DNA from: Alcanivorax sp. S71-1-4
Lineage (GTDB): Bacteria > Pseudomonadota > Gammaproteobacteria > Pseudomonadales > Alcanivoracaceae
Direction: 5' to 3'
Assembly: GCF_009846755.1 (NCBI RefSeq)
Contig: NZ_AQOR01000004.1
Coordinates: forward strand, 1 to 64,000
Length of the DNA: 64,000 nucleotides
Part shown: piece by piece, positions 12,495 through 56,905 of the stretch
Position numbering within the stretch: the stretch's first letter is position 1
Layout: every line of letters starts with the position of its first letter
Position numbers and translations under genes: made by a program
The notes under the pieces: model-generated
The model's database searches: none
The model's input: the letters and a program-made list of their open reading frames with translations, nothing else
Told to the model about the DNA's origin: nothing

Positions 12495-13181
12495 GTGTTC
12501 GGAAACAGTCATCAGGTGGCCAGCAATCAGGACGGTCCGCACGAGCAACTGGCGGCGGTGGTGGCGCGTCATCTGGCCCATCCCTGGCGGGCACCGGTGG
12601 CCGCGCACACCCGCACGGCCTTTGCTGACGCGGCGGACTGGCGCGCCGCACAGGGTGCGCAGCGGCCGCTGGTGCTCGACAGCGGCTGCGGCACCGGGCG
12701 CTCTTCGGTGTGGCTGGCCGGCCAGCACCCGGAGGCGCTGGTGATCGGGCTGGATCAGTCCGGCGAGCGTCTGCGCCGCGGGCATCTTCGCTTCGACCCG
12801 CTGCCGTCGAATCTGTTGCTGCTGCGCGCCGAGGCGGCGGATTTCTGGCGGCTGGCGGTCGAGGCGGGCTGGCGGGTGCAGGAACATTGCCTGTTCTATC
12901 CCAATCCCTGGCCAAAAAGCGCGCACCTGCGTCGACGCTGGCACGGTCACCCGGTGTTCCCGGTGTTGCTGCAACTGGGCGGGCAGTTGCGATTGCGCAG
13001 CAACTGGCCTGTCTATCTGGAGGAAATGCGGCGGGCGCTGGTGCTGGCCGGTGCGACCGCGCAGGTCAGTGCGCTGCCGGGCGCGATGACGCCGGTGACG
13101 GATTTCGAGGAGAAATATCACGCCAGCGCGCACCCGCTGGGGGAGTTGCTCGGCAATCTGGAGCCCGCTCGGGCGCTTTAG
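12495..13181 (+). CDS. TrmB-like tRNA (guanine-N7) methyltransferase family protein
   Basis: This SAM-dependent methyltransferase has about 228 residues. The SAM motif is VLDSGCGTGRSS, with the following acidic residue in GLDQS. FYPNPWPK matches the TrmB hallmark, as does the downstream SNWPVYLEEM, followed by VTDFEEKYH. These support the N7-guanine tRNA methyltransferase fold. It belongs to a shorter Pseudomonas-type subgroup that differs from canonical TrmB, so the exact RNA substrate is uncertain. I place the start at the GTG of 12495, which follows CGGAG; an in-frame ATG at 12465 is the alternative. It overlaps the convergent gene at 13178 by 4 nt. Confidence 0.8.
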   Translation: MFGNSHQVASNQDGPHEQLAAVVARHLAHPWRAPVAAHTRTAFADAADWRAAQGAQRPLVLDSGCGTGRSSVWLAGQHPEALVIGLDQSGERLRRGHLRFDPLPSNLLLLRAEAADFWRLAVEAGWRVQEHCLFYPNPWPKSAHLRRRWHGHPVFPVLLQLGGQLRLRSNWPVYLEEMRRALVLAGATAQVSALPGAMTPVTDFEEKYHASAHPLGELLGNLEPARAL

Positions 13182-13687
13182 AGAAAGAGCTGCCGCAGGC
13201 GCGGGTCCGGCCGGGCCCGTGCCCAGCGGTCCTCGAAATCCCGCAGCAGCCCTCGGGCAGCCAGTGGCGCGGCGGCACAGGCGTAACCCTCAGCGTAACG
13301 ATCGTGCGGGCGCCAGATCAGGGCCCGCGCGTCCGCGATCAGCCAGGCGGCGCGCTGGCGGTCGTCCGGCTGGGCCTGCAACAGAGTGATGTAGCTGGGA
13401 AAGCGGCGTGCCAGGGTGATCAGGCGGTGGCTGCCCGCGAGCGCGCTGTCGGCGTCGTTGAACAGTACCTGCACGCGGCAGAAGCGGCTCTGGCGGATGA
13501 AACGTCCGATCAGGTCGCCGATGTCGGTGCTGCCGAGCAACGCGGTATCCAGCGTGGGGGCCTGGACCACGAGATGGCGGCGAGTGCGTGGGATCAGTCG
13601 CTGGAGCGCGCCGAGAAAGTCGTCAGCATGCTCCAGCGGATGACGCTGGCTGTCCTGTTCGGTCGGCCAGTCGGCGGGCAGGGCCAC
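13178..13687 (-). CDS. Conserved hypothetical protein (DUF7931-like)
   Basis: This 169-residue soluble protein has no signal peptide or membrane segment. The sequence LVVQAPTLDTALLG, VQVLFNDADSALAGSHRLITLARRFPSYITL and ALIWRPHDRYAEGYA is reminiscent of a degenerate phospholipase D-like fold, but the HKD catalytic motif is missing. It starts at a GTG 3 nt downstream of the acetyltransferase stop codon and is probably translated with it. Similar proteins commonly sit beside GNAT genes in related genera. Function unknown. Confidence 0.7.
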   Translation of the reverse strand: MALPADWPTEQDSQRHPLEHADDFLGALQRLIPRTRRHLVVQAPTLDTALLGSTDIGDLIGRFIRQSRFCRVQVLFNDADSALAGSHRLITLARRFPSYITLLQAQPDDRQRAAWLIADARALIWRPHDRYAEGYACAAAPLAARGLLRDFEDRWARARPDPRLRQLFL

Positions 13688-38276: not shown

Positions 38277-38366
38277 GGAGAGGTGGCAGAGCGGTTGAAT
38301 GCAACGGTCTTGAAAACCGTCGAGGATTAACGTCCTCCGTGGGTTCGAATCCCACCCTCTCCGCCA
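38277..38366 (+). tRNA. tRNA-Ser (anticodon UGA)
   Basis: This 90-nt class II tRNA has acceptor stem GGAGAGG/CCTCTCC and encoded CCA (38364-38366). The anticodon stem ACGGT/ACCGT has loop CTTGAAA, giving TGA. A long variable arm (GAGGATTAACGTCCTC) and a T arm GTGGG-TTCGAAT-CCCAC complete the cloverleaf. The prophage integrase begins 209 nt downstream, so the 3' half is the likely phage attachment site. Confidence 0.97.
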
Positions 38367-38413
38367 TCTCAAACCCAGTAACCATGCGGCTTTTAGCCTT
38401 TCGCGCCCTCGCC

Positions 38414-38574: not shown

Positions 38575-39741
38575 TCAGGAAAGGCTCAGTTTGGCATTGA
38601 TCATACCGGCCACGTCCGGGGCGTCCTCCCGGATCCATTTCGCATATCTTCGATAGATCATTTCTGTGTTGACGTGGCCCATGTGTTCAACCAGCCACGG
38701 GATCGGCACTATCCCGCTACTAAGCATCTGACTGGCGAACGTGTGCCGGCATTGCCCTGGGCCTCTGTAAGGAACGCCTGCTGCCTTCAGGTGGGGTTTG
38801 AAGAACGAATCGCGCAAATAGTCGTCGCTCACCATCGGCGTGCCTGCGCGCGTATTCATCCACACAAAGCGCACCTTCTGCTTCCTGAGTGTTCGATTGT
38901 CGCGGTCAAGCACCTCGATTGGCGTCGGGCGCAGGCGGCCAGTTATTTCATACTGTTCCCGCAACGCCCGTAAAGCCGGCGCTAGGAGCTTGTGTGTCCT
39001 CTTGGATCGCCGCGTTTTGGTGACCCGGTATTGGTTCATGACCCGGCTGCGTCTGTAGGTGATTTCACCCGTTGTCAGGTCGATATCCTCCCAGGCAAGT
39101 GCAATGGCTTCGCTGACTCGGGGGCCATCCCAGATCATGTACTCGATCATTGCCCGTTCAGACGGGCGGTCTGTGTCCTGGCTCAGGATGGCTTGGATCT
39201 CTGCTCGAGTGAACGGGTCAGGATCCTCTGGATCCGGTAGCGCGATGGTTATGCCCGTCGTTGGGTCGCGGGCATCGGGGTTGCGCCGCCGGAACAGGGC
39301 GATCACCTGCCGGATGATGCTCAATACTTCCCGCAAGGTCTTGTTTTTGAGCGGTAGCGAGTTAAGCCAAATTTCCAGGTCAATCGGGTCTATCATGTCA
39401 GCTTGAATTTTCCCCCAGCGGGGTCTGATGTGAACCTCTGCACGGCTTCGATAACCATGCATTGTGCCTGGTGCGATTTTTTGCTGTTTCAGATCGAGCC
39501 AGGTATCCAGGTAACGGCCGAAGCTGTTCCCCTCGAGCGAGGATGATTCGGGAAAATACTTGGCATAGTTAAATGTACCGTTCCGGATCTCGTGCCGAAT
39601 CATCTGTGCTATGGCATGGGCATGCTCGACCGCTCTCTTGTTCGCCGGGCCTGGGATTGTTTCCCGGCACAAACGGCCGTTATATCTGAAATGCACGCGC
39701 ACAGCGCCGCCGCGCACTTCTACGCCTTTTAAGCCTTTCAT
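38575..39741 (-). CDS. int: Tyrosine-type phage integrase
   Basis: This 388-residue site-specific recombinase has an N-terminal Arm-DNA-binding part (VEVRGGAVRVHFRYNGRLCRETIPG, DUF3596-like), a SAM-like core-binding domain (about 70-165) and a C-terminal catalytic domain. Catalytic residues are visible: Arg in DGPRVSEAIALAWEDI, CRHTFASQM (His-x-x-Arg type box), HMGHVNTEMIYRRYAKW with the terminal His and the nucleophilic Tyr. It probably integrates the phage at the neighbouring tRNA-Ser. It reads towards the tRNA, an orientation in which the gene remains adjacent to attL. Confidence 0.95.
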   Translation of the reverse strand: MKGLKGVEVRGGAVRVHFRYNGRLCRETIPGPANKRAVEHAHAIAQMIRHEIRNGTFNYAKYFPESSSLEGNSFGRYLDTWLDLKQQKIAPGTMHGYRSRAEVHIRPRWGKIQADMIDPIDLEIWLNSLPLKNKTLREVLSIIRQVIALFRRRNPDARDPTTGITIALPDPEDPDPFTRAEIQAILSQDTDRPSERAMIEYMIWDGPRVSEAIALAWEDIDLTTGEITYRRSRVMNQYRVTKTRRSKRTHKLLAPALRALREQYEITGRLRPTPIEVLDRDNRTLRKQKVRFVWMNTRAGTPMVSDDYLRDSFFKPHLKAAGVPYRGPGQCRHTFASQMLSSGIVPIPWLVEHMGHVNTEMIYRRYAKWIREDAPDVAGMINAKLSLS

Positions 39742-40327: not shown

Positions 40328-41095
40328 TCACGCCTCGCCCTCCCAATTCAGAATCAGCAATTCCCTGGCCTGGCTGGCTTTTTTCCCCACGGTGTATGTC
40401 GTAGAAACCTCACGCATGGGCAGCCCTGCGAATGCCTGGCGGATATCGGGGTGGTCATTGATGCTGATGATCATCTTCCCCTGCACCTGGCGGGCCAGCT
40501 CGGCCATAAGGTGGTACTGCTCAGGTGGGAAAGGGCAGCCGTAGCCTGTGACCTGGTGGTAAGGCGGGTCCAGGTAAAACAGCGTGTAGGGGCGGTCGTA
40601 GCGTTTCACCACATCCTGCCAGTCCAGCCGCTCGATGTAGGCCCGCGACAACCGCAGGTGCGCCTGGCTCAGGTCCTCCTCGATGCGCAGCAGGTTCAAT
40701 TTCGGCGGGGCGCTCGGCGCTGTGCCGAACGTCTGGCTTGTCGGCCTGGCACCGAAGGCAGTCTTCTGCAGGAAGTAAAACCTTGCCGCGCGTTGGATAT
40801 CGGTGAGCGGTTCGGTGGGGGACATCTTGAGCCATTCGAACATCTGCCGGCTGACCAGCGACCAGCGGAAATGCCGGATGAATTCGTCCAGGTGGTGCTG
40901 GGTGATCCGGTACAGATTGACCAGTTCGCCGTGCACGTCGTTCAGCACCTCGGTTTTGGCCGGGGGCTTCATGAAGAACAGCGCGGCGCTGCCGGCGAAG
41001 GCTTCAACGTAGCAGTCGTGTTCAGGGAATAACGGCAGGATGTGCTTGGCCAGGCGGCGCTTGCCGCCCATCCAGGGTAGGATAGGTTTTGCCAT
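40328..41095 (-). CDS. Dam-type DNA adenine N6-methyltransferase
   Basis: This 255-residue SAM-dependent adenine methyltransferase of the Dam class begins AKPILPWMGGKRRL. The SAM site includes VEAFAGSAALFF and the catalytic motif IV is DPPY (in LFYLDPPYHQVTG). The target-recognition middle part is shorter than in E. coli Dam. The ATG at 41095 is the usual start; the frame runs to 41173. No restriction endonuclease is beside it, so it is an orphan phage methylase, likely protecting phage DNA or marking it for regulation. The recognition sequence is unknown. Confidence 0.9.
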   Translation of the reverse strand: MAKPILPWMGGKRRLAKHILPLFPEHDCYVEAFAGSAALFFMKPPAKTEVLNDVHGELVNLYRITQHHLDEFIRHFRWSLVSRQMFEWLKMSPTEPLTDIQRAARFYFLQKTAFGARPTSQTFGTAPSAPPKLNLLRIEEDLSQAHLRLSRAYIERLDWQDVVKRYDRPYTLFYLDPPYHQVTGYGCPFPPEQYHLMAELARQVQGKMIISINDHPDIRQAFAGLPMREVSTTYTVGKKASQARELLILNWEGEA

Positions 41096-41170
41096 GAGCC
41101 TGTTTCCTATGGGGCATCTCGGATACACTCCCGCGCGCTGCGTCGACGCGGCGGCGGGTCTTGGCTGGCT

Positions 41171-41224
41171 CATGTGGGTGTTTCACATGGTGCCGGGGCT
41201 GACAGGTGTTGGCGCACCTGTCAG
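41171..41224. promoter_or_regulatory. Two adjacent inverted repeats upstream of the adenine methylase
   Basis: CATGTG (41171-41176) pairs with CACATG (41184-41189). CTGACAGGTG (41199-41208) pairs perfectly with CACCTGTCAG (41215-41224). Both lie in the 286-nt divergent region between the methylase and hicA. The second has no T tract in either direction, so an operator is more likely than a terminator. Confidence 0.45.
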
Positions 41225-41286
41225 TCGCCCGTCTCTCACTTGCCCGGCCCATTCTGGTTATCCCGCCCTGAACCTCCAGCGGTCGC

Positions 41287-41311
41287 GTTTGTGGTTGTGA
41301 CAAACACAAAC
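41287..41311 (+). promoter_or_regulatory. 25-bp dyad upstream of hicA, twin of a site before the tail sheath gene
   Basis: GTTTGTGGTTGT, one central base, then ACAAACACAAAC form a dyad with 11 of 12 symmetric pairs. Twenty of 25 bases agree with the site at 56877-56901. The centre (41299) is 83 nt from the hicA ATG at 41382, the same distance as in the other copy. The TGT-13 nt-ACA spacing is close to the TGT-12 nt-ACA of P2 Ogr-activated late promoters, so an activator site is proposed. Confidence 0.6.
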
Positions 41312-41381
41312 ACAGCCGTTCCGGGTATTGCTTTCCCCCGTCCTAATCCCTACCATCTGTATCATTCGTGATATATCAAGA

Positions 41382-41576
41382 ATGGACGAGATGAACGGAA
41401 AGCAGGTCATTAAGGCACTCAAGGCAGAAGGATTCGAAGTGCTCCGGGTGCGCGGCAGCCACCACATCCTGGGCAACGGCGAGTGCAAGGTCACCGTGCC
41501 AGTACATGGGACCACCGACCTGAAACCGGGCACTTTGAGCAGTATCGAGAAACAATCTGGAGTGAAACTGAAATGA
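41382..41576 (+). CDS. hicA: HicA-type toxin
   Basis: This 64-residue double-stranded-RNA-binding-fold mRNA interferase of the HicA family contains GKQVIKALKAEGFEVLRVRGSHHIL, with the catalytic His in GSHH, then VTVPVHGTTDLKPGTLSSIEKQSGV. The family cleaves mRNA and is neutralised by HicB. ATG codons lie at 41382 and 41391; the first is preferred because it places the upstream dyad at the same distance as in the sheath gene. The stop overlaps the hicB start (ATGA). Confidence 0.88.
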   Translation: MDEMNGKQVIKALKAEGFEVLRVRGSHHILGNGECKVTVPVHGTTDLKPGTLSSIEKQSGVKLK

Positions 41577-41998
41577 AAGGTCTGGCGATCCAATATCCGG
41601 CCGTGCTGGAAAAGGATGGTGAAGGCTATACGGTGACGTTCCCGGATCTGCCCGAGGCTATCACCGAGGGTGACGATCTGGAGATGGCGCTGTTCAACGC
41701 CGCCGAGGCACTGACATTGGCCCTGGAACAGCGGATCAATGACGGTGACCCGATTCCCGCGCCGAGCAAGGTGGCCCGGGCGCGGATGGTGGAGCCGGAT
41801 GTTGCCATCCAGGTGGCGCTGTTGCTGCGCCTCGAGCGAGAGCGTCAACAGAAAAGCGTGACGGATATCGCGCGCGCCCTGGATACGTCCTGGGCGTCAG
41901 CGCAGCGCCTGGAGCGTGCCCGTGGCAATCCGACGCTGCGCCAGCTCGAGCGGGCGGCAGCGGCCCTGGGCAAGCGCCTGCACTTCGAACTGGTGTAA
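41573..41998 (+). CDS. hicB: HicB-type antitoxin with C-terminal helix-turn-helix
   Basis: This 141-residue antitoxin has a partial RNase H-fold HicB domain at the N-terminus (YPAVLEKDGEGYTVTFPDLPEAITEGDDLEMALFNAAEAL). A DNA-binding helix-turn-helix at the C-terminus (TDIARALDTSWASAQRLERARGNPTLRQLERAAAALGK) probably represses its own promoter. It is translationally coupled to hicA and convergent with the antirepressor-like gene, with one base between stops. Confidence 0.92.
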   Translation: MKGLAIQYPAVLEKDGEGYTVTFPDLPEAITEGDDLEMALFNAAEALTLALEQRINDGDPIPAPSKVARARMVEPDVAIQVALLLRLERERQQKSVTDIARALDTSWASAQRLERARGNPTLRQLERAAAALGKRLHFELV

Positions 41999-42655: not shown

Positions 42656-43113
42656 TGTGGCCTCCCGATCTGCCGCACCTTGCCGCGCGCCTGGTCGATG
42701 ACCAGATCCTTGTGTTCGCCGTTTCCGTTCTCGGAGAACGCCTCACAGACGCTGTCTGACCATTGGTCGTTGTTACGCAGGTACAGGTAGCGCTCCGCGT
42801 TTTCGTCCACCCCAGAAAGGCTGTCAGCGAGCGAGAGCGTGCGACTACGGGCAGGCTCGACCATCCTCTGCCCCCAGGTCCGCAGCAGCGCCTGGGCCTG
42901 CTGAACGGGCCGGGCGGGGTGACGCCTAGCGGAACGCTCGAGGCGCATGGAAAATCCTGATTGCTCCCGGCAGGTGTTACTTCTGGCCAGGATGACGCCG
43001 TCCGTGTCCAGGACATATTGATATCCATCGCTGGGACCGGCATCGACAAAGGTGGCGCGCGCCCGTTCCTGCTGGGCAAGAGAAAGCTCAGAAAATGGGT
43101 GATAGGTCGTCAT
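42652..43113 (-). CDS. Phage protein of unknown function
   Basis: This 153-residue soluble protein contains PFSELSLAQQERARATFVDAG, GYQYVLDTDGVILAR and YLYLRNNDQWSDSVCEAFSENG. No family is recognised. It overlaps the cytosine methyltransferase stop and the next gene by 4 nt on each side, so it is a genuine member of the operon. Confidence 0.7.
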   Translation of the reverse strand: MTTYHPFSELSLAQQERARATFVDAGPSDGYQYVLDTDGVILARSNTCREQSGFSMRLERSARRHPARPVQQAQALLRTWGQRMVEPARSRTLSLADSLSGVDENAERYLYLRNNDQWSDSVCEAFSENGNGEHKDLVIDQARGKVRQIGRPH

Positions 43114-44024
43114 GCTGCCTCCCTGATCGCGTTAAGTAATCGGCGTGCTGCTTCCGGGCATACAGAGTTGCCCAGCAAATGAACCGCAAGCCGGTGATCG
43201 TCTGGAATGTGGTGGTTTTGGGGGAAACTCATCCCGTCTCGGCATTCGAAACGGTTGATCATGCGCATCTTATCGCCGTGCACGATGGCCCAGCGGTCGC
43301 GTGTCGGGATGGTGCCGATAGGGCGGTCGAGACTGCGTCCTGTCAGTCCGGAACCGCTGCTGTAGAAGGGCATGATGAACGTGTCCCCGAAGCGTTTCCG
43401 ACCGTTTCTGACGCGCCGCAGTGTCGCGGGGCTTCGTCCTGGTTTATCGATTGGTTGCCACCGTCCTTCCTGCAGATCGATAAAAGAACGGGCGGGAATA
43501 TGAGGTTCCGGTTCCAGATGTAGGAACAGTGGATGCCGGCCACGGGTAGCGACGATGAATAGGCGCTTGCGGTGTTGTGGCACTCCATAGTCGGCGGCAT
43601 CGAGAATGTGCGGGGCGAGTTGGTAGCCCAAGTCTGCCATCGCTTGATGCCATGCCGGATAAAGGGACCACCTTATAAAGCCGGGCACGTTTTCAACAAC
43701 CACTATGTCGTGGCGATGATATTCGACAGCGGAAACCACTGCCCAGGCGGTGGAGCGGCTGACATCGTGGTGGGGCCTGTCTTTGCCGCGTGCCGGGGTA
43801 TGACCATGGCAACATGGAGCTGCCAGCAGCATGCTGGTGCGAGGCACCTGCGACCAGTCAGCTTGCTGTAAATCCTGGCAATTGTGCTTTGTCTCCGGAT
43901 GGTTCCTGCGATGCCATGCGACGGCATCTTGCCAGTGGTTTGCGGCCCACTTCACGGTAATTCCCGCGAGCGTTGCCCCGGTGGAGAACCCGCCGAGACC
44001 TGCAAAAAGATCGATAGCATCCAT
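43110..44024 (-). CDS. DNA cytosine-C5 methyltransferase
   Basis: This 304-residue C5-methyltransferase has motif I DLFAGLGGFSTGA and motif IV AAPCCHGHT with the catalytic Cys in Pro-Cys. PCC replaces the more usual PCQ or PCP. Motif VI is VVENVPGF, motif VIII is DYGVPQHRKRLFIVA and the C-terminal motifs IX-X are RMINRFECRDGM and LLGNSVCPEAARRLL. No restriction partner is present. Together with the adenine methylase it gives the phage two modification activities. The recognition site is unknown. Confidence 0.92.
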   Translation of the reverse strand: MDAIDLFAGLGGFSTGATLAGITVKWAANHWQDAVAWHRRNHPETKHNCQDLQQADWSQVPRTSMLLAAPCCHGHTPARGKDRPHHDVSRSTAWAVVSAVEYHRHDIVVVENVPGFIRWSLYPAWHQAMADLGYQLAPHILDAADYGVPQHRKRLFIVATRGRHPLFLHLEPEPHIPARSFIDLQEGRWQPIDKPGRSPATLRRVRNGRKRFGDTFIMPFYSSGSGLTGRSLDRPIGTIPTRDRWAIVHGDKMRMINRFECRDGMSFPQNHHIPDDHRLAVHLLGNSVCPEAARRLLNAIREAA

Positions 44025-48039: not shown

Positions 48040-48164
48040 TGTTGAATTTCCTCCGTAGTTTTTTCTTGCAAAAGCCAGCGAGCGAGGCACGCGCGCCGGT
48101 GTTCCTCAATGGCCTGCCGCTGTTCAGGCGCCAGGTCCGTCAAAGATCGATATCTGGTTTTCAT
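47934..48164 (-). CDS. Small phage protein (DUF7696-like)
   Basis: This 76-residue basic protein contains YRSLTDLAPEQRQAIEEHRRACLARWLL and ASMRRHLRENYRK. Similar short proteins occur after Ogr-type genes in Pseudomonas-like prophages. It overlaps the Ogr gene by 41 nt and the next gene by 106 nt, a dense arrangement. The ribosome site is weak, so confidence is moderate. Confidence 0.55.
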   Translation of the reverse strand: MKTRYRSLTDLAPEQRQAIEEHRRACLARWLLQEKTTEEIQQWLADKTPSFGASMRRHLRENYRKVARYSPINSGS

Positions 48165-48420
48165 CGGAAGTGATCGGGATATCGCCGGGCCGCCATGGGC
48201 TGACCGGCAGGTTGACGGCAGGGTTTGGCATGCCGCTGGGGCTGAGTCCCCGCACGGCCTCCACCTGGGCCACCCAGGCAAAGCTGCACGCCGGGTTCTT
48301 ACATTGGTAATACACCTCTTTGAGCAGCCGGCTCAGTTGCCTGCTGGAACGGGCTGCCGCGCCGCTGGTGCAGTGCGGGCACCGCATTCCGGGGTTGGCT
48401 GAAACGCGAGGCGAGGCCAT
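48124..48420 (-). CDS. ogr: Ogr/Delta-type zinc-finger late-gene activator
   Basis: This 98-residue protein of the P2 Ogr/P4 Delta family activates phage late promoters in known members by contacting RNA polymerase. The zinc site is MRCPHC...YYQCKNPACSFAW (CxxC and CxxxxC), followed by VEAVRGLSPSGMPNPAVNLP. It is placed second in the early leftward operon, whereas P2 ogr lies beside gene D. The 25-bp dyads at 41287 and 56877 are candidate targets. Confidence 0.9.
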   Translation of the reverse strand: MASPRVSANPGMRCPHCTSGAAARSSRQLSRLLKEVYYQCKNPACSFAWVAQVEAVRGLSPSGMPNPAVNLPVSPWRPGDIPITSDENQISIFDGPGA

Positions 48421-48423
48421 GAC

Positions 48424-48636
48424 TCACGCCTCGCTGGTGGCTTTCTGATAGGCGCGCAGGCCGTCCAGAAACAGCATCCGGGCGGTGGCGCTCAGGCTGC
48501 GCATTTCCAGCCCGGCGACCTGTTCCAGGGTGGCTCTTTCCTCGGCGGTGAGGCCCATCAGTACCTGGGCGGACAGGCCGGTCCGCATGGAAGGGGCGCG
48601 ACGGCCCCGGCAGGGGGTAGTCCGGTTATCTTTCAT
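48424..48636 (-). CDS. Small protein, possibly ribbon-helix-helix type
   Basis: This 70-residue protein has a basic N-terminus (TTPCRGRRAPSMRTG). LSAQVLMGLTAEERATLEQVAGLEMRSLSATARMLFLDGLRAYQKA resembles an Arc/RHH DNA-binding unit. It is the first gene of the early leftward operon, directly facing the repressor, and so could be a Cro-like regulator. AAGGGA directly abuts the ATG, an unusually short spacing. Confidence 0.6.
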   Translation of the reverse strand: MKDNRTTPCRGRRAPSMRTGLSAQVLMGLTAEERATLEQVAGLEMRSLSATARMLFLDGLRAYQKATSEA

Positions 48637-49122: not shown

Positions 49123-49713
49123 ATGGAGGGTGCACTTATTGCTATCGGTGGTGTCATCGTAGGTGCCGTTGCGGCCGGTATTAAAGATTTGTTTTTCCTG
49201 TGGACCAAGAACAAAAAGGAAAGGGATTACTCTGCAATTCGCTTGGCCGCGGCGCTAGATGGTTTTTACTTCAGATGTATAGATATATCTTATGATGTGG
49301 CTTACTGGACCGAGGCATCTTCTACTAAGGATCTTGGGCAATTTACCTTGCCAGTATTTATGGTTGATGACCTTGGTGTGAATTGGAAGAGTTTGCCCAA
49401 TGATGTTGCTTACGAAGTGTTGAATTTCAGCAACAAAATATATGCTTCTAACTATACAATTGACTGTGCTTTTTTTCATTTGCATGACCCTCCGGATTTT
49501 CCTGAGGCATTTGAAATAAGGCAATATGAGTATGCAAAGCTTGGACTTTTTGCTCATGAACTTGCGTCGAGAATTAGGGAGATGGCTGGGCTGCCGGAGC
49601 GAGATAATAGTGAAAAATTCCATCCGGCTCATGAGCTTCAGATCACTATAGAGCGCATAGAGAAAAGGAGGGAGGAAAGGATAGAAAGAAATAGGAAACA
49701 TATCCCATCCTAA
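49123..49713 (+). CDS. AT-rich membrane-anchored protein, probable lysogenic accessory gene
   Basis: This 196-residue protein of unknown function has one N-terminal transmembrane segment (ALIAIGGVIVGAVAAGIKDLFFLW). A soluble part rich in aromatic and acidic residues follows (DGFYFRCIDISYDVAYW, YTIDCAFFHLHDPPDFPEAFE), ending in a highly charged tail (RIEKRREERIERNRK). Its base composition is much richer in A+T than all neighbours and uses codons such as ATA and AGA freely, so it was probably acquired separately. GGAGA precedes the ATG. Its position behind the repressor suggests expression in the lysogen, as for superinfection-exclusion or defence genes. Confidence 0.75.
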   Translation: MEGALIAIGGVIVGAVAAGIKDLFFLWTKNKKERDYSAIRLAAALDGFYFRCIDISYDVAYWTEASSTKDLGQFTLPVFMVDDLGVNWKSLPNDVAYEVLNFSNKIYASNYTIDCAFFHLHDPPDFPEAFEIRQYEYAKLGLFAHELASRIREMAGLPERDNSEKFHPAHELQITIERIEKRREERIERNRKHIPS

Positions 49714-56872: not shown

Positions 56873-56905
56873 GCCTGTTTGTATTTGCAACAAATACAAA
56901 CAGGC
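56873..56905 (-). promoter_or_regulatory. 15-bp palindrome before the sheath gene: terminator and/or activator dyad
   Basis: GCCTGTTTGTATTTG (56873-56887) is perfectly complementary to 56891-56905, with a 3-nt loop. Read leftward it lies 48 nt after the fibre gene stop and is followed by TTTGATG, so it could end the fibre transcript. The central 25 bp (56877-56901) share 20 bases with the dyad before hicA, and both are centred 83 nt from the start codon. P2 also has a late promoter (PF) here, activated by Ogr from a dyad near -55. Confidence 0.65.

What the first reader, a model, noticed from the sequence alone, without database searches (positions are those of the whole stretch)
41287..41311. 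Same 25-bp dyad, at the same distance, before hicAB and before the tail sheath gene
The dyad at 41287-41311 and the one at 56877-56901 share GTTTGT, 2 nt, TTG, 2 nt, ACAAA, 1 nt, ACAAAC (20 of 25 bases). Each is centred exactly 83 nt upstream of an ATG (hicA 41382; sheath 56806), and the orientation relative to the gene is the same. A P2 late promoter (PF) lies at the equivalent sheath position and is driven by Ogr from a TGT-N12-ACA dyad near -55; here the spacing is N13, and an Ogr homolog is encoded at 48124. The inference is that the prophage hicAB toxin-antitoxin pair is a late-activated phage gene set and not only an autoregulated module. I know of no description of this, but cannot search.
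Basis: partly seen in the sequence, partly recalled or inferred. Interest (0 to 1): 0.78.

Follow-up and report, generated by a model that had tools for sequence, protein, structure and literature searches.

The report
Late-gene switch beside prophage toxin-antitoxin pair
A dormant virus in this bacterium carries a third copy of the DNA site that probably turns on its particle-building genes, and this copy sits between a toxin-antitoxin pair and a DNA-modifying enzyme gene, so one or both may be switched on late when the virus awakens.

Summary
The two dyads are real. Relatives carry sites of the same build at P/O, V and FI late promoters, and PMC5694545 (passages) describes TGTTGT-N13-ACAACA at four phiRSY1 late promoters. 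So the dyad is very probably the late-activator (Ogr) operator. "hicAB is late-activated" is only partly supported. hicA more likely starts at 41391, so the spacing is 92 nt, not 83. hicAB has its own promoter and a HicB-operator-like palindrome, shared with a same-genus hicAB copy whose genome has no dyad and no sheath homolog. The dyad also faces a Dam-like methyltransferase gene, whose side has the better, but 1-nt shifted, -10 match; unshifted, neither side matches. P2 uses one activator site for two divergent promoters, so both sides may respond. Five relatives with three recoverable sites have none at accessory genes. hicAB in a late operon has precedent in lambda-like phages (PMC4553209, passages). 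There are no binding or expression data.

The parts
41287..41311 (.). 25-bp dyad GTTTGT-N13-ACAAAC, accessory copy of the phage late operator, in the methyltransferase/hicAB divergent gap
   Evidence: one of three perfect copies in the genome
56877..56901 (.). 25-bp dyad before tail sheath gene FI (symmetry extends to about 56873-56905); late operator PF
   Evidence: arms kept in a 93%-identical sister phage contig; P2's record has its PF activator site at the same 83-nt centre-to-ATG distance
41251..41256 (-). candidate -10 (CAGAAT) for leftward late transcription, 43-48 nt from the dyad centre
   Evidence: 2.9% of prophage positions score as well with three shifts allowed; only at a 1-nt shift; inferred
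40328..41095 (-). Dam-like D12-class adenine methyltransferase (likely start MAKPILPW at 41095; longest reading from 41173)
41328..41356 (+). hicAB own promoter candidate TTGCTT-17-TACCAT
   Evidence: same layout (TTGCCA-17-TACCAT) in G336; the stricter consensus scan did not list it
41363..41384 (.). 22-bp palindrome CATTCGTGATATATCAAGAATG, candidate HicB operator
   Evidence: 10 of 11 pairs counted by eye; core TGATATATCA and 9 of 11 pairs in G336
41391..41576 (+). hicA (likely start 41391)
   Evidence: PF07927 1.4e-17 on the reading from 41382; PHROG toxin 4.4e-18 from 41391
41573..41998 (+). hicB with C-terminal HTH
   Evidence: PF15919 3.3e-13, HTH_31 2.5e-6
48124..48420 (-). ogr homolog, CX2CX22CX4C zinc finger
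   Evidence: PF04606 6.5e-17; all four Cys invariant in 9 aligned sequences, one of them a partial reading; only one found in the genome
55640..56806 (-). tail sheath gene FI
   Evidence: PHROG 23 3.5e-136
38344..38372 (+). attL at the 3' end of tRNA-Ser (38277-38366); attR at contig 73889-73917 outside the window
   Evidence: 29-bp direct repeat, tRNA
38575..39741 (-). integrase
   Evidence: PF00589 1.7e-14

Best explanation
The dyad is an accessory copy of this P2-like prophage's late-activator operator. SHOWN: three copies, all in this prophage, two of them at the structural late promoters (P/O and FI); the same build of site occurs at late promoters of relatives. INFERRED: after induction the phage's single Ogr protein binds all three sites and recruits host RNA polymerase to -10 elements about 45 nt from the centre, with starts about 55 nt away, as annotated for P2. 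At the accessory site this most likely starts leftward transcription of the Dam-like methyltransferase, so that progeny DNA is modified before packaging, and possibly also rightward transcription of hicAB. That would add a late pulse on top of hicAB's own HicB-repressed promoter. The P/O site of P2, which serves two divergent operons, is the model.
For: Third perfect copy at the O/P gap and no other in 4.18 Mb; one 3-mismatch match on contig 42. FI distance 83 nt as in P2; P2's record annotates ONE activator site for both pO and pP. KS5, AP3, Mana and Carl1 each have GGTTGT-N13-ACAACC at P/O and FI, and at V exactly (AP3) or with one mismatch; KS14 and FLC5 have GTTTGT-N13-ACAAAC at V, 56 nt from its ATG. 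Published TGTTGT-N13-ACAACA at four phiRSY1 late promoters. In two contigs (93% and 96% identical) from one metagenome, taken as one sister phage, the P/O and FI sites keep all 22 arm bases while one centre base differs at each. The hic core matches the other sites 20 of 25 while flanks match 3-7 of 30, so the site itself, not a recent duplication, is shared. Leftward -10 match better than 97% of positions, three shifts allowed.
Against: No binding or transcription data. In the register of the 16 aligned promoters neither side of the hic dyad matches (65% of prophage positions score as well as the left side, 85% as well as the right), and the matrix holds near-identical relatives. With three shifts allowed the right side (22.6%) is close to accepted O promoters (19.0% ours, 14.6% FLC5), so -10 scores do not exclude hicAB. 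The likely methyltransferase start leaves a leader of about 150 nt with a 10-bp-stem hairpin. None of 80 methyltransferase loci (the best of 151 found) has such a site upstream; the one match anywhere equals the control count. KL3, Momento, Acica, FLC10 and P2 have no site by the strict matrix, although KL3's Ogr is 52% identical over the matched part.
Confidence: 0.58

Rival explanations
1. One reading: the dyad serves hicAB specifically, making the toxin-antitoxin pair a late phage gene; the methyltransferase is a bystander.
For: The dyad is closer to hicA (92 nt) than to the methyltransferase start (204 nt from 41095, 126 from 41173), and its distance is like that of O genes (88-95 nt; coordinates). 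E. coli hicAB has an externally activated upstream promoter plus a HicB-repressed one (PMC11594946). hicAB lies in the late operon of Mannheimia lambda-like phages (PMC4553209) and in the structural module of Acinetobacter phage R3177 (PMC5795418).
Against: Weaker -10 match on this side; hicAB carries its own promoter and operator candidates; the quoted 83-nt identity uses an unlikely start.
Confidence: 0.2
2. The dyad is a HicB operator and HicB also controls the structural late operons.
For: A dyad before a hicAB operon is what an autoregulator would use; this HicB has an HTH domain.
Against: A different palindrome at the hicAB start region is conserved in G336, whose genome lacks the dyad. 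The two other HicA-family genes of the genome have no copy. Relatives have the N13 sites at late promoters, and no hicAB is annotated in KS5, AP3, Mana or Carl1.
Confidence: 0.05
3. The site is bound by another phage regulator (the Arc-like protein at 48424-48636 or the immunity repressor) and silences late and accessory genes in the lysogen.
For: An Arc-like gene lies near ogr in KS14, FLC5, KS5, AP3 and KL3, adjacent or one or two genes away; a repressor would fit a long near-perfect palindrome.
Against: Position (centre near -55) and half-sites match activator sites of P2 and phiRSY1; no copy lies at the repressor/Arc promoters.
Confidence: 0.09
4. The accessory copy is a non-functional relic, for instance of a displaced V promoter.
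For: It is the only one of the three copies with an unpaired position within its 11-bp arms; this phage has no V site; its -10 regions are out of register.
Against: The outer half-sites are perfect and the flanks do not resemble the other sites.
Confidence: 0.08

Closest known systems
P2 late promoters PP/PO, PV, PF with Ogr
   Same: Zinc-finger activator with CX2CX22CX4C; site centred about 55 nt before the start; one site shared by divergent P and O; FI spacing 83 nt
   Different: Published P2 consensus is TGT-N12-ACA (PMC3931495, passages); here N13 with long symmetric arms, no V site, and one site at accessory genes
phiRSA1/phiRSY1 late promoters (PMC5694545, passages read)
   Same: 6-bp half-sites with N13, at -50 to -90 from start codons
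   Different: Half-site TGTTGT rather than GTTTGT; the passage lists the 5' regions of ORF7, ORF8, ORF21 and ORF28 as late promoters, with no toxin-antitoxin site mentioned there
KS5, AP3, Mana, Carl1 (Peduoviridae of Burkholderia)
   Same: GGTTGT-N13-ACAACC at P/O and FI in all four, V too (three of four with one mismatch)
   Different: No extra site near accessory genes (at most one mismatch, N12 or N13), although AP3 has a RelE-like pair and KS5 an Old-like gene
hicAB in late operons of other phages (PMC4553209, PMC5795418; passages read)
   Same: Phage hicAB placed for late expression
   Different: There by lying inside the late operon or structural module of lambda-like or siphovirus genomes, here by a separate copy of the late operator outside the structural operons
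E. coli hicAB two-promoter control (PMC11594946, passages read)
   Same: Activator-driven distal promoter plus HicB-repressed promoter would be the same logic
   Different: There the activator system is Sxy with a CRP-S site, here a phage protein (inferred)
Phage Mu mom operon (recalled, not from a call)
   Same: DNA-modification gene under the phage's late activator
   Different: Unrelated activator and modification enzyme

Membership tests
Ogr-dependent late promoter (P2 type) | Encoded Ogr/Delta zinc-finger activator | tested here: met
   PF04606 6.5e-17, only one found in the genome
Ogr-dependent late promoter (P2 type) | TGT-N12-ACA dyad (P2) or TGTTGT-N13-ACAACA (phiRSA1/phiRSY1) | tested here: met
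   GTTTGT-N13-ACAAAC: TGT-N13-ACA form met, N12 form not
Ogr-dependent late promoter (P2 type) | Same dyad at the structural late operons of the same phage | tested here: met
   P/O and FI yes; V no, V overlapping the upstream gene here
Ogr-dependent late promoter (P2 type) | -10 element about 45 nt from the dyad centre | tested here: inconclusive
   Three shifts allowed: left 2.9%, right 22.6% of positions score as well; unshifted: 65% and 85%
Ogr-dependent late promoter (P2 type) | Ogr-dependent transcription after induction | not testable with these tools
   needs RNA mapping and binding assays
HicB operator | Dyad kept before homologous hicAB outside this phage | tested here: not met
   Absent in G336; a different palindrome is kept; no dyad at the other two HicA-family genes

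The most novel reading that the evidence does not exclude
One bidirectional Ogr operator puts a toxin-antitoxin pair and an anti-restriction methyltransferase together under the phage's late switch: hicAB is quiet and HicB-repressed in the lysogen, then receives a second, repressor-independent burst during particle assembly, so HicA could act in lytic timing or against rival phages.
Probability: 0.4. Interest if true: 0.62.

Novelty: new variant of a known kind. Interest (0 to 1): 0.45.

Why it matters
Phage-borne toxin-antitoxin pairs are often read as lysogeny-stabilising or defence genes with private autoregulation. A late-activator operator at such a pair, facing a modification gene, would tie accessory genes to the lytic programme without placing them inside a structural operon. 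It gives a simple search rule: look for extra copies of a phage's own late operator next to cargo genes. It also makes testable whether Ogr sites act in both directions outside the P/O gap.

Tried and rejected
Genome-collection scan for GTTTGT-N2-TTG-N3-CAA-N2-ACAAAC: 5 stretches in unrelated bacteria, read as chance; contexts not examined. Viral-contig scan with the shorter form: 115 stretches; a BLAST of the prophage against these, the 5 genome stretches and L155 found two separate contigs of one metagenome, L114 and L155 (L091 is the same contig as L155), and no other similar one. HicB in viral contigs: no relatives, so the hic dyad could not be checked in the sister phage. HicB in 390 genomes of the order: 7 have a relative at 1e-10 (own genome included); only G336's promoter was aligned; the upstream DNA of the other five (32-37% identical) was printed but not scanned. 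Paraburkholderia phage IPK has a HicB relative, but no match to our P, FI or Ogr proteins, so it is no replicate. Genus scan: 1 of 7 genomes has the dyad; with the looser pattern of that scan the contig 42 match has 2 mismatches. Joint dyad search in KL3, KS14, FLC5, Momento, Acica and KS5 ranked no convincing shared 25-mer; the KS5 sites were first seen by eye in its printed sequences and then scanned. The fixed N13 matrix found V sites in KS14 and FLC5, weaker P/O (10 of 12), none at FI. FLC10, KL3, Momento, Acica and P2: none at 12 of 12. A terminator between hicB and the opposing gene was not listed. I first took phage 4908's methyltransferase, which follows portal gene Q, as support for late expression; the 133-nt gap holds a GC-rich hairpin and CTGTATAT repeats that look like a promoter or SOS-type region of its own (recalled motif), so I no longer count it as evidence. 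The first -10 percentages used a full-matrix background for the leave-one-out rows and one shift only for those rows; one search repeats this on equal terms. The matrix used 16 promoter rows; the P, O and FI rows of Mana and Carl1 and the P/O rows of KS14 were left out as near-copies or uncertain, P2's four as differently spaced. Literature: no paper found on hicAB with an Ogr promoter; searches (open-licence PMC full text only). Of the papers listed there for this question, passages of PMC5795418 and PMC4553209 were read, those of PMC3931495 and PMC5694545 earlier; the rest were seen as listings only. One search gave irrelevant papers.

Full report
Observation. The dyads at 41287-41311 and 56877-56901 are present as described and share 20 of 25 bases. 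The joint pattern with up to 3 mismatches hits only these two places in the window; 100 dinucleotide shuffles gave none. In the whole genome (4,177,950 bases, 77 contigs) there is one further perfect copy, contig 34:69587-69611; the only other match has 3 mismatches and lies on contig 42.

Setting. The prophage runs from attL 38344-38372, at the 3' end of tRNA-Ser 38277-38366, to attR at contig 73889-73917, a 29-bp repeat. PHROG matches cover portal, both terminase subunits, scaffold, major head protein, head completion, holin, endolysin, tail terminator and completion, baseplate, fibres, sheath, tube and tape measure. The third dyad lies between scaffold gene O (start 69511, minus strand) and terminase gene P (start 69656, plus strand), 88 and 57 nt from their ATGs. 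Gene V has no dyad; its GTG overlaps the upstream gene by 4 nt, so it probably belongs to the O operon. The hic dyad lies in the gap between a Dam-like methyltransferase (minus strand; 40328-41173 in the longest reading, likely start 41095) and hicAB (plus strand).

What binds it. Four relatives, KS5, AP3, Mana and Carl1, have three sites each, GGTTGT-N13-ACAACC with at most one mismatch, at P/O, V and FI, and no other N12/N13 match at that stringency in their genomes. KS14 and FLC5 have GTTTGT-N13-ACAAAC, our half-site, 56 nt before V, and a weaker form (10 of 12) at P/O. A P2-like Halomonas phage (4908) has another half-site, GGTGT-N14-ACACC, again at P/O, V and FI, plus one 1-mismatch hit at 12725 inside the tail gene annotated 12711-13247. 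P2's own record annotates one activator site for both pO and pP, a V site with its start at the ATG, and an FI site 83 nt from the ATG. PMC5694545 (passages read) reports TGTTGT-N13-ACAACA at four late promoter regions of phiRSY1, matching phiRSA1. PMC3931495 (passages) gives TGT-N12-ACA for P2. Two contigs of one metagenome, 93% and 96% identical to our prophage, keep all 22 arm bases of the FI and P/O dyads while one of the three centre bases differs at each. Against universality: KL3, Momento, Acica, FLC10 and P2 give no site with the strict N13 matrix. The Ogr homolog is the only one found in the genome and keeps the four cysteines, invariant across nine aligned sequences. I take the dyad as the Ogr operator; this step is comparative, not shown by binding.

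Which gene it serves. In genome G336, of the same genus, with HicB 79% identical, no sheath homolog and no dyad, the DNA aligns from the -10 region onward; ATG 41382 reads AAG there while the ATG at 41391 is kept. The same alignment shows a shared promoter layout, TTGCTT or TTGCCA, 17 nt, TACCAT, and a shared palindrome around TGATATATCA (10 of 11 pairs here, 9 of 11 in G336, counted by eye), a good HicB-operator candidate. The similarity stops upstream of it. So hicAB probably came with its own control, and the dyad is a phage-side addition or neighbour. The two other HicA-family genes of the genome have no dyad.

Direction. I aligned 16 promoters from ours and relatives on the dyad centre. 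A -10-like block appears at about 43-50 nt; ours O and FI read CACGATGG and CAACATGG, ours P TACCGTTC. A matrix of offsets 40-51 was scored on both sides of the hic dyad. In the common register neither side matches: 65% of prophage positions score as well as the methyltransferase side and 85% as well as the hicAB side. With a shift of one base either way allowed on both the sites and the background, the figures are 2.9% and 22.6%. On the same terms accepted promoters left out one at a time range from 0.0% to 19.0% (ours O). So the leftward side is favoured, weakly, and the rightward side is not excluded. Leftwards the dyad-to-gene path is longer (126 or 204 nt). None of 80 methyltransferase loci (the best of 151 relatives) in viral contigs has an N13 site upstream; one match anywhere equals the reversed control.

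Likely working. On induction Ogr accumulates, binds the three operators and activates O, P, FI and, at the accessory site, the methyltransferase and possibly hicAB. Late methylation of progeny DNA would protect it from restriction in the next host (inference; phage Mu's mom gene is the recalled parallel). For hicAB, a distal activated promoter above a HicB-repressed one would resemble E. [quoted passage not shown]

Novelty. Late promoters of this type are known, including the N13 form. hicAB in a late operon is known in lambda-like Mannheimia phages (PMC4553209, passages), and a HicAB cassette lies in the structural module of Acinetobacter phage R3177 (PMC5795418, passages). What is unusual here is a separate copy of the late operator outside the structural operons: in five relatives with three recoverable sites each (KS5, AP3, Mana, Carl1, 4908), those sites lie at structural promoters. 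Searches for hicAB with late promoters or Ogr found no report of such an operator (open-licence PMC only, most hits seen as listings). I rate it a new variant of a known kind.

Odds.

Noticed in passing
window 49123-49713: Plus-strand gene beside the repressor region matches PADLOC candidate defence family PDC-S67 (3.7e-56).
   Followed up: no
window 41199-41224: 10-bp-stem hairpin CTGACAGGTG-CGCCAA-CACCTGTCAG between the dyad and the methyltransferase start; it would lie in the leader of a leftward late transcript.
   Followed up: no
L309 (Halomonas phage 4908) 1378-2136: Methyltransferase homolog directly after portal gene Q on the same strand, but with a hairpin and CTGTATAT repeats in the gap; this phage uses GGTGT-N14-ACACC as its shared P/O, V and FI dyad.
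   Followed up: partly
L197 (phage Acica) 24149-24698: BrnT/BrnA toxin-antitoxin pair directly after gene D on the same strand, that is, at the end of the F late operon: another possible late toxin-antitoxin pair.
   Followed up: no
L194 18046-18070 and L195 20611-20635: KS14 and FLC5 carry GTTTGT-N13-ACAAAC 56 nt before V although their records annotate no promoter there.
   Followed up: partly
contig 34:69656 (P gene) and V genes of relatives: Centre-to-ATG distance of 56-57 nt at P and V implies nearly leaderless late mRNAs, as P2's record annotates for V.
   Followed up: no
window 43110-44024 and 40328-41173: The prophage carries two DNA methyltransferases of different type, one C5-cytosine and one adenine.
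   Followed up: no
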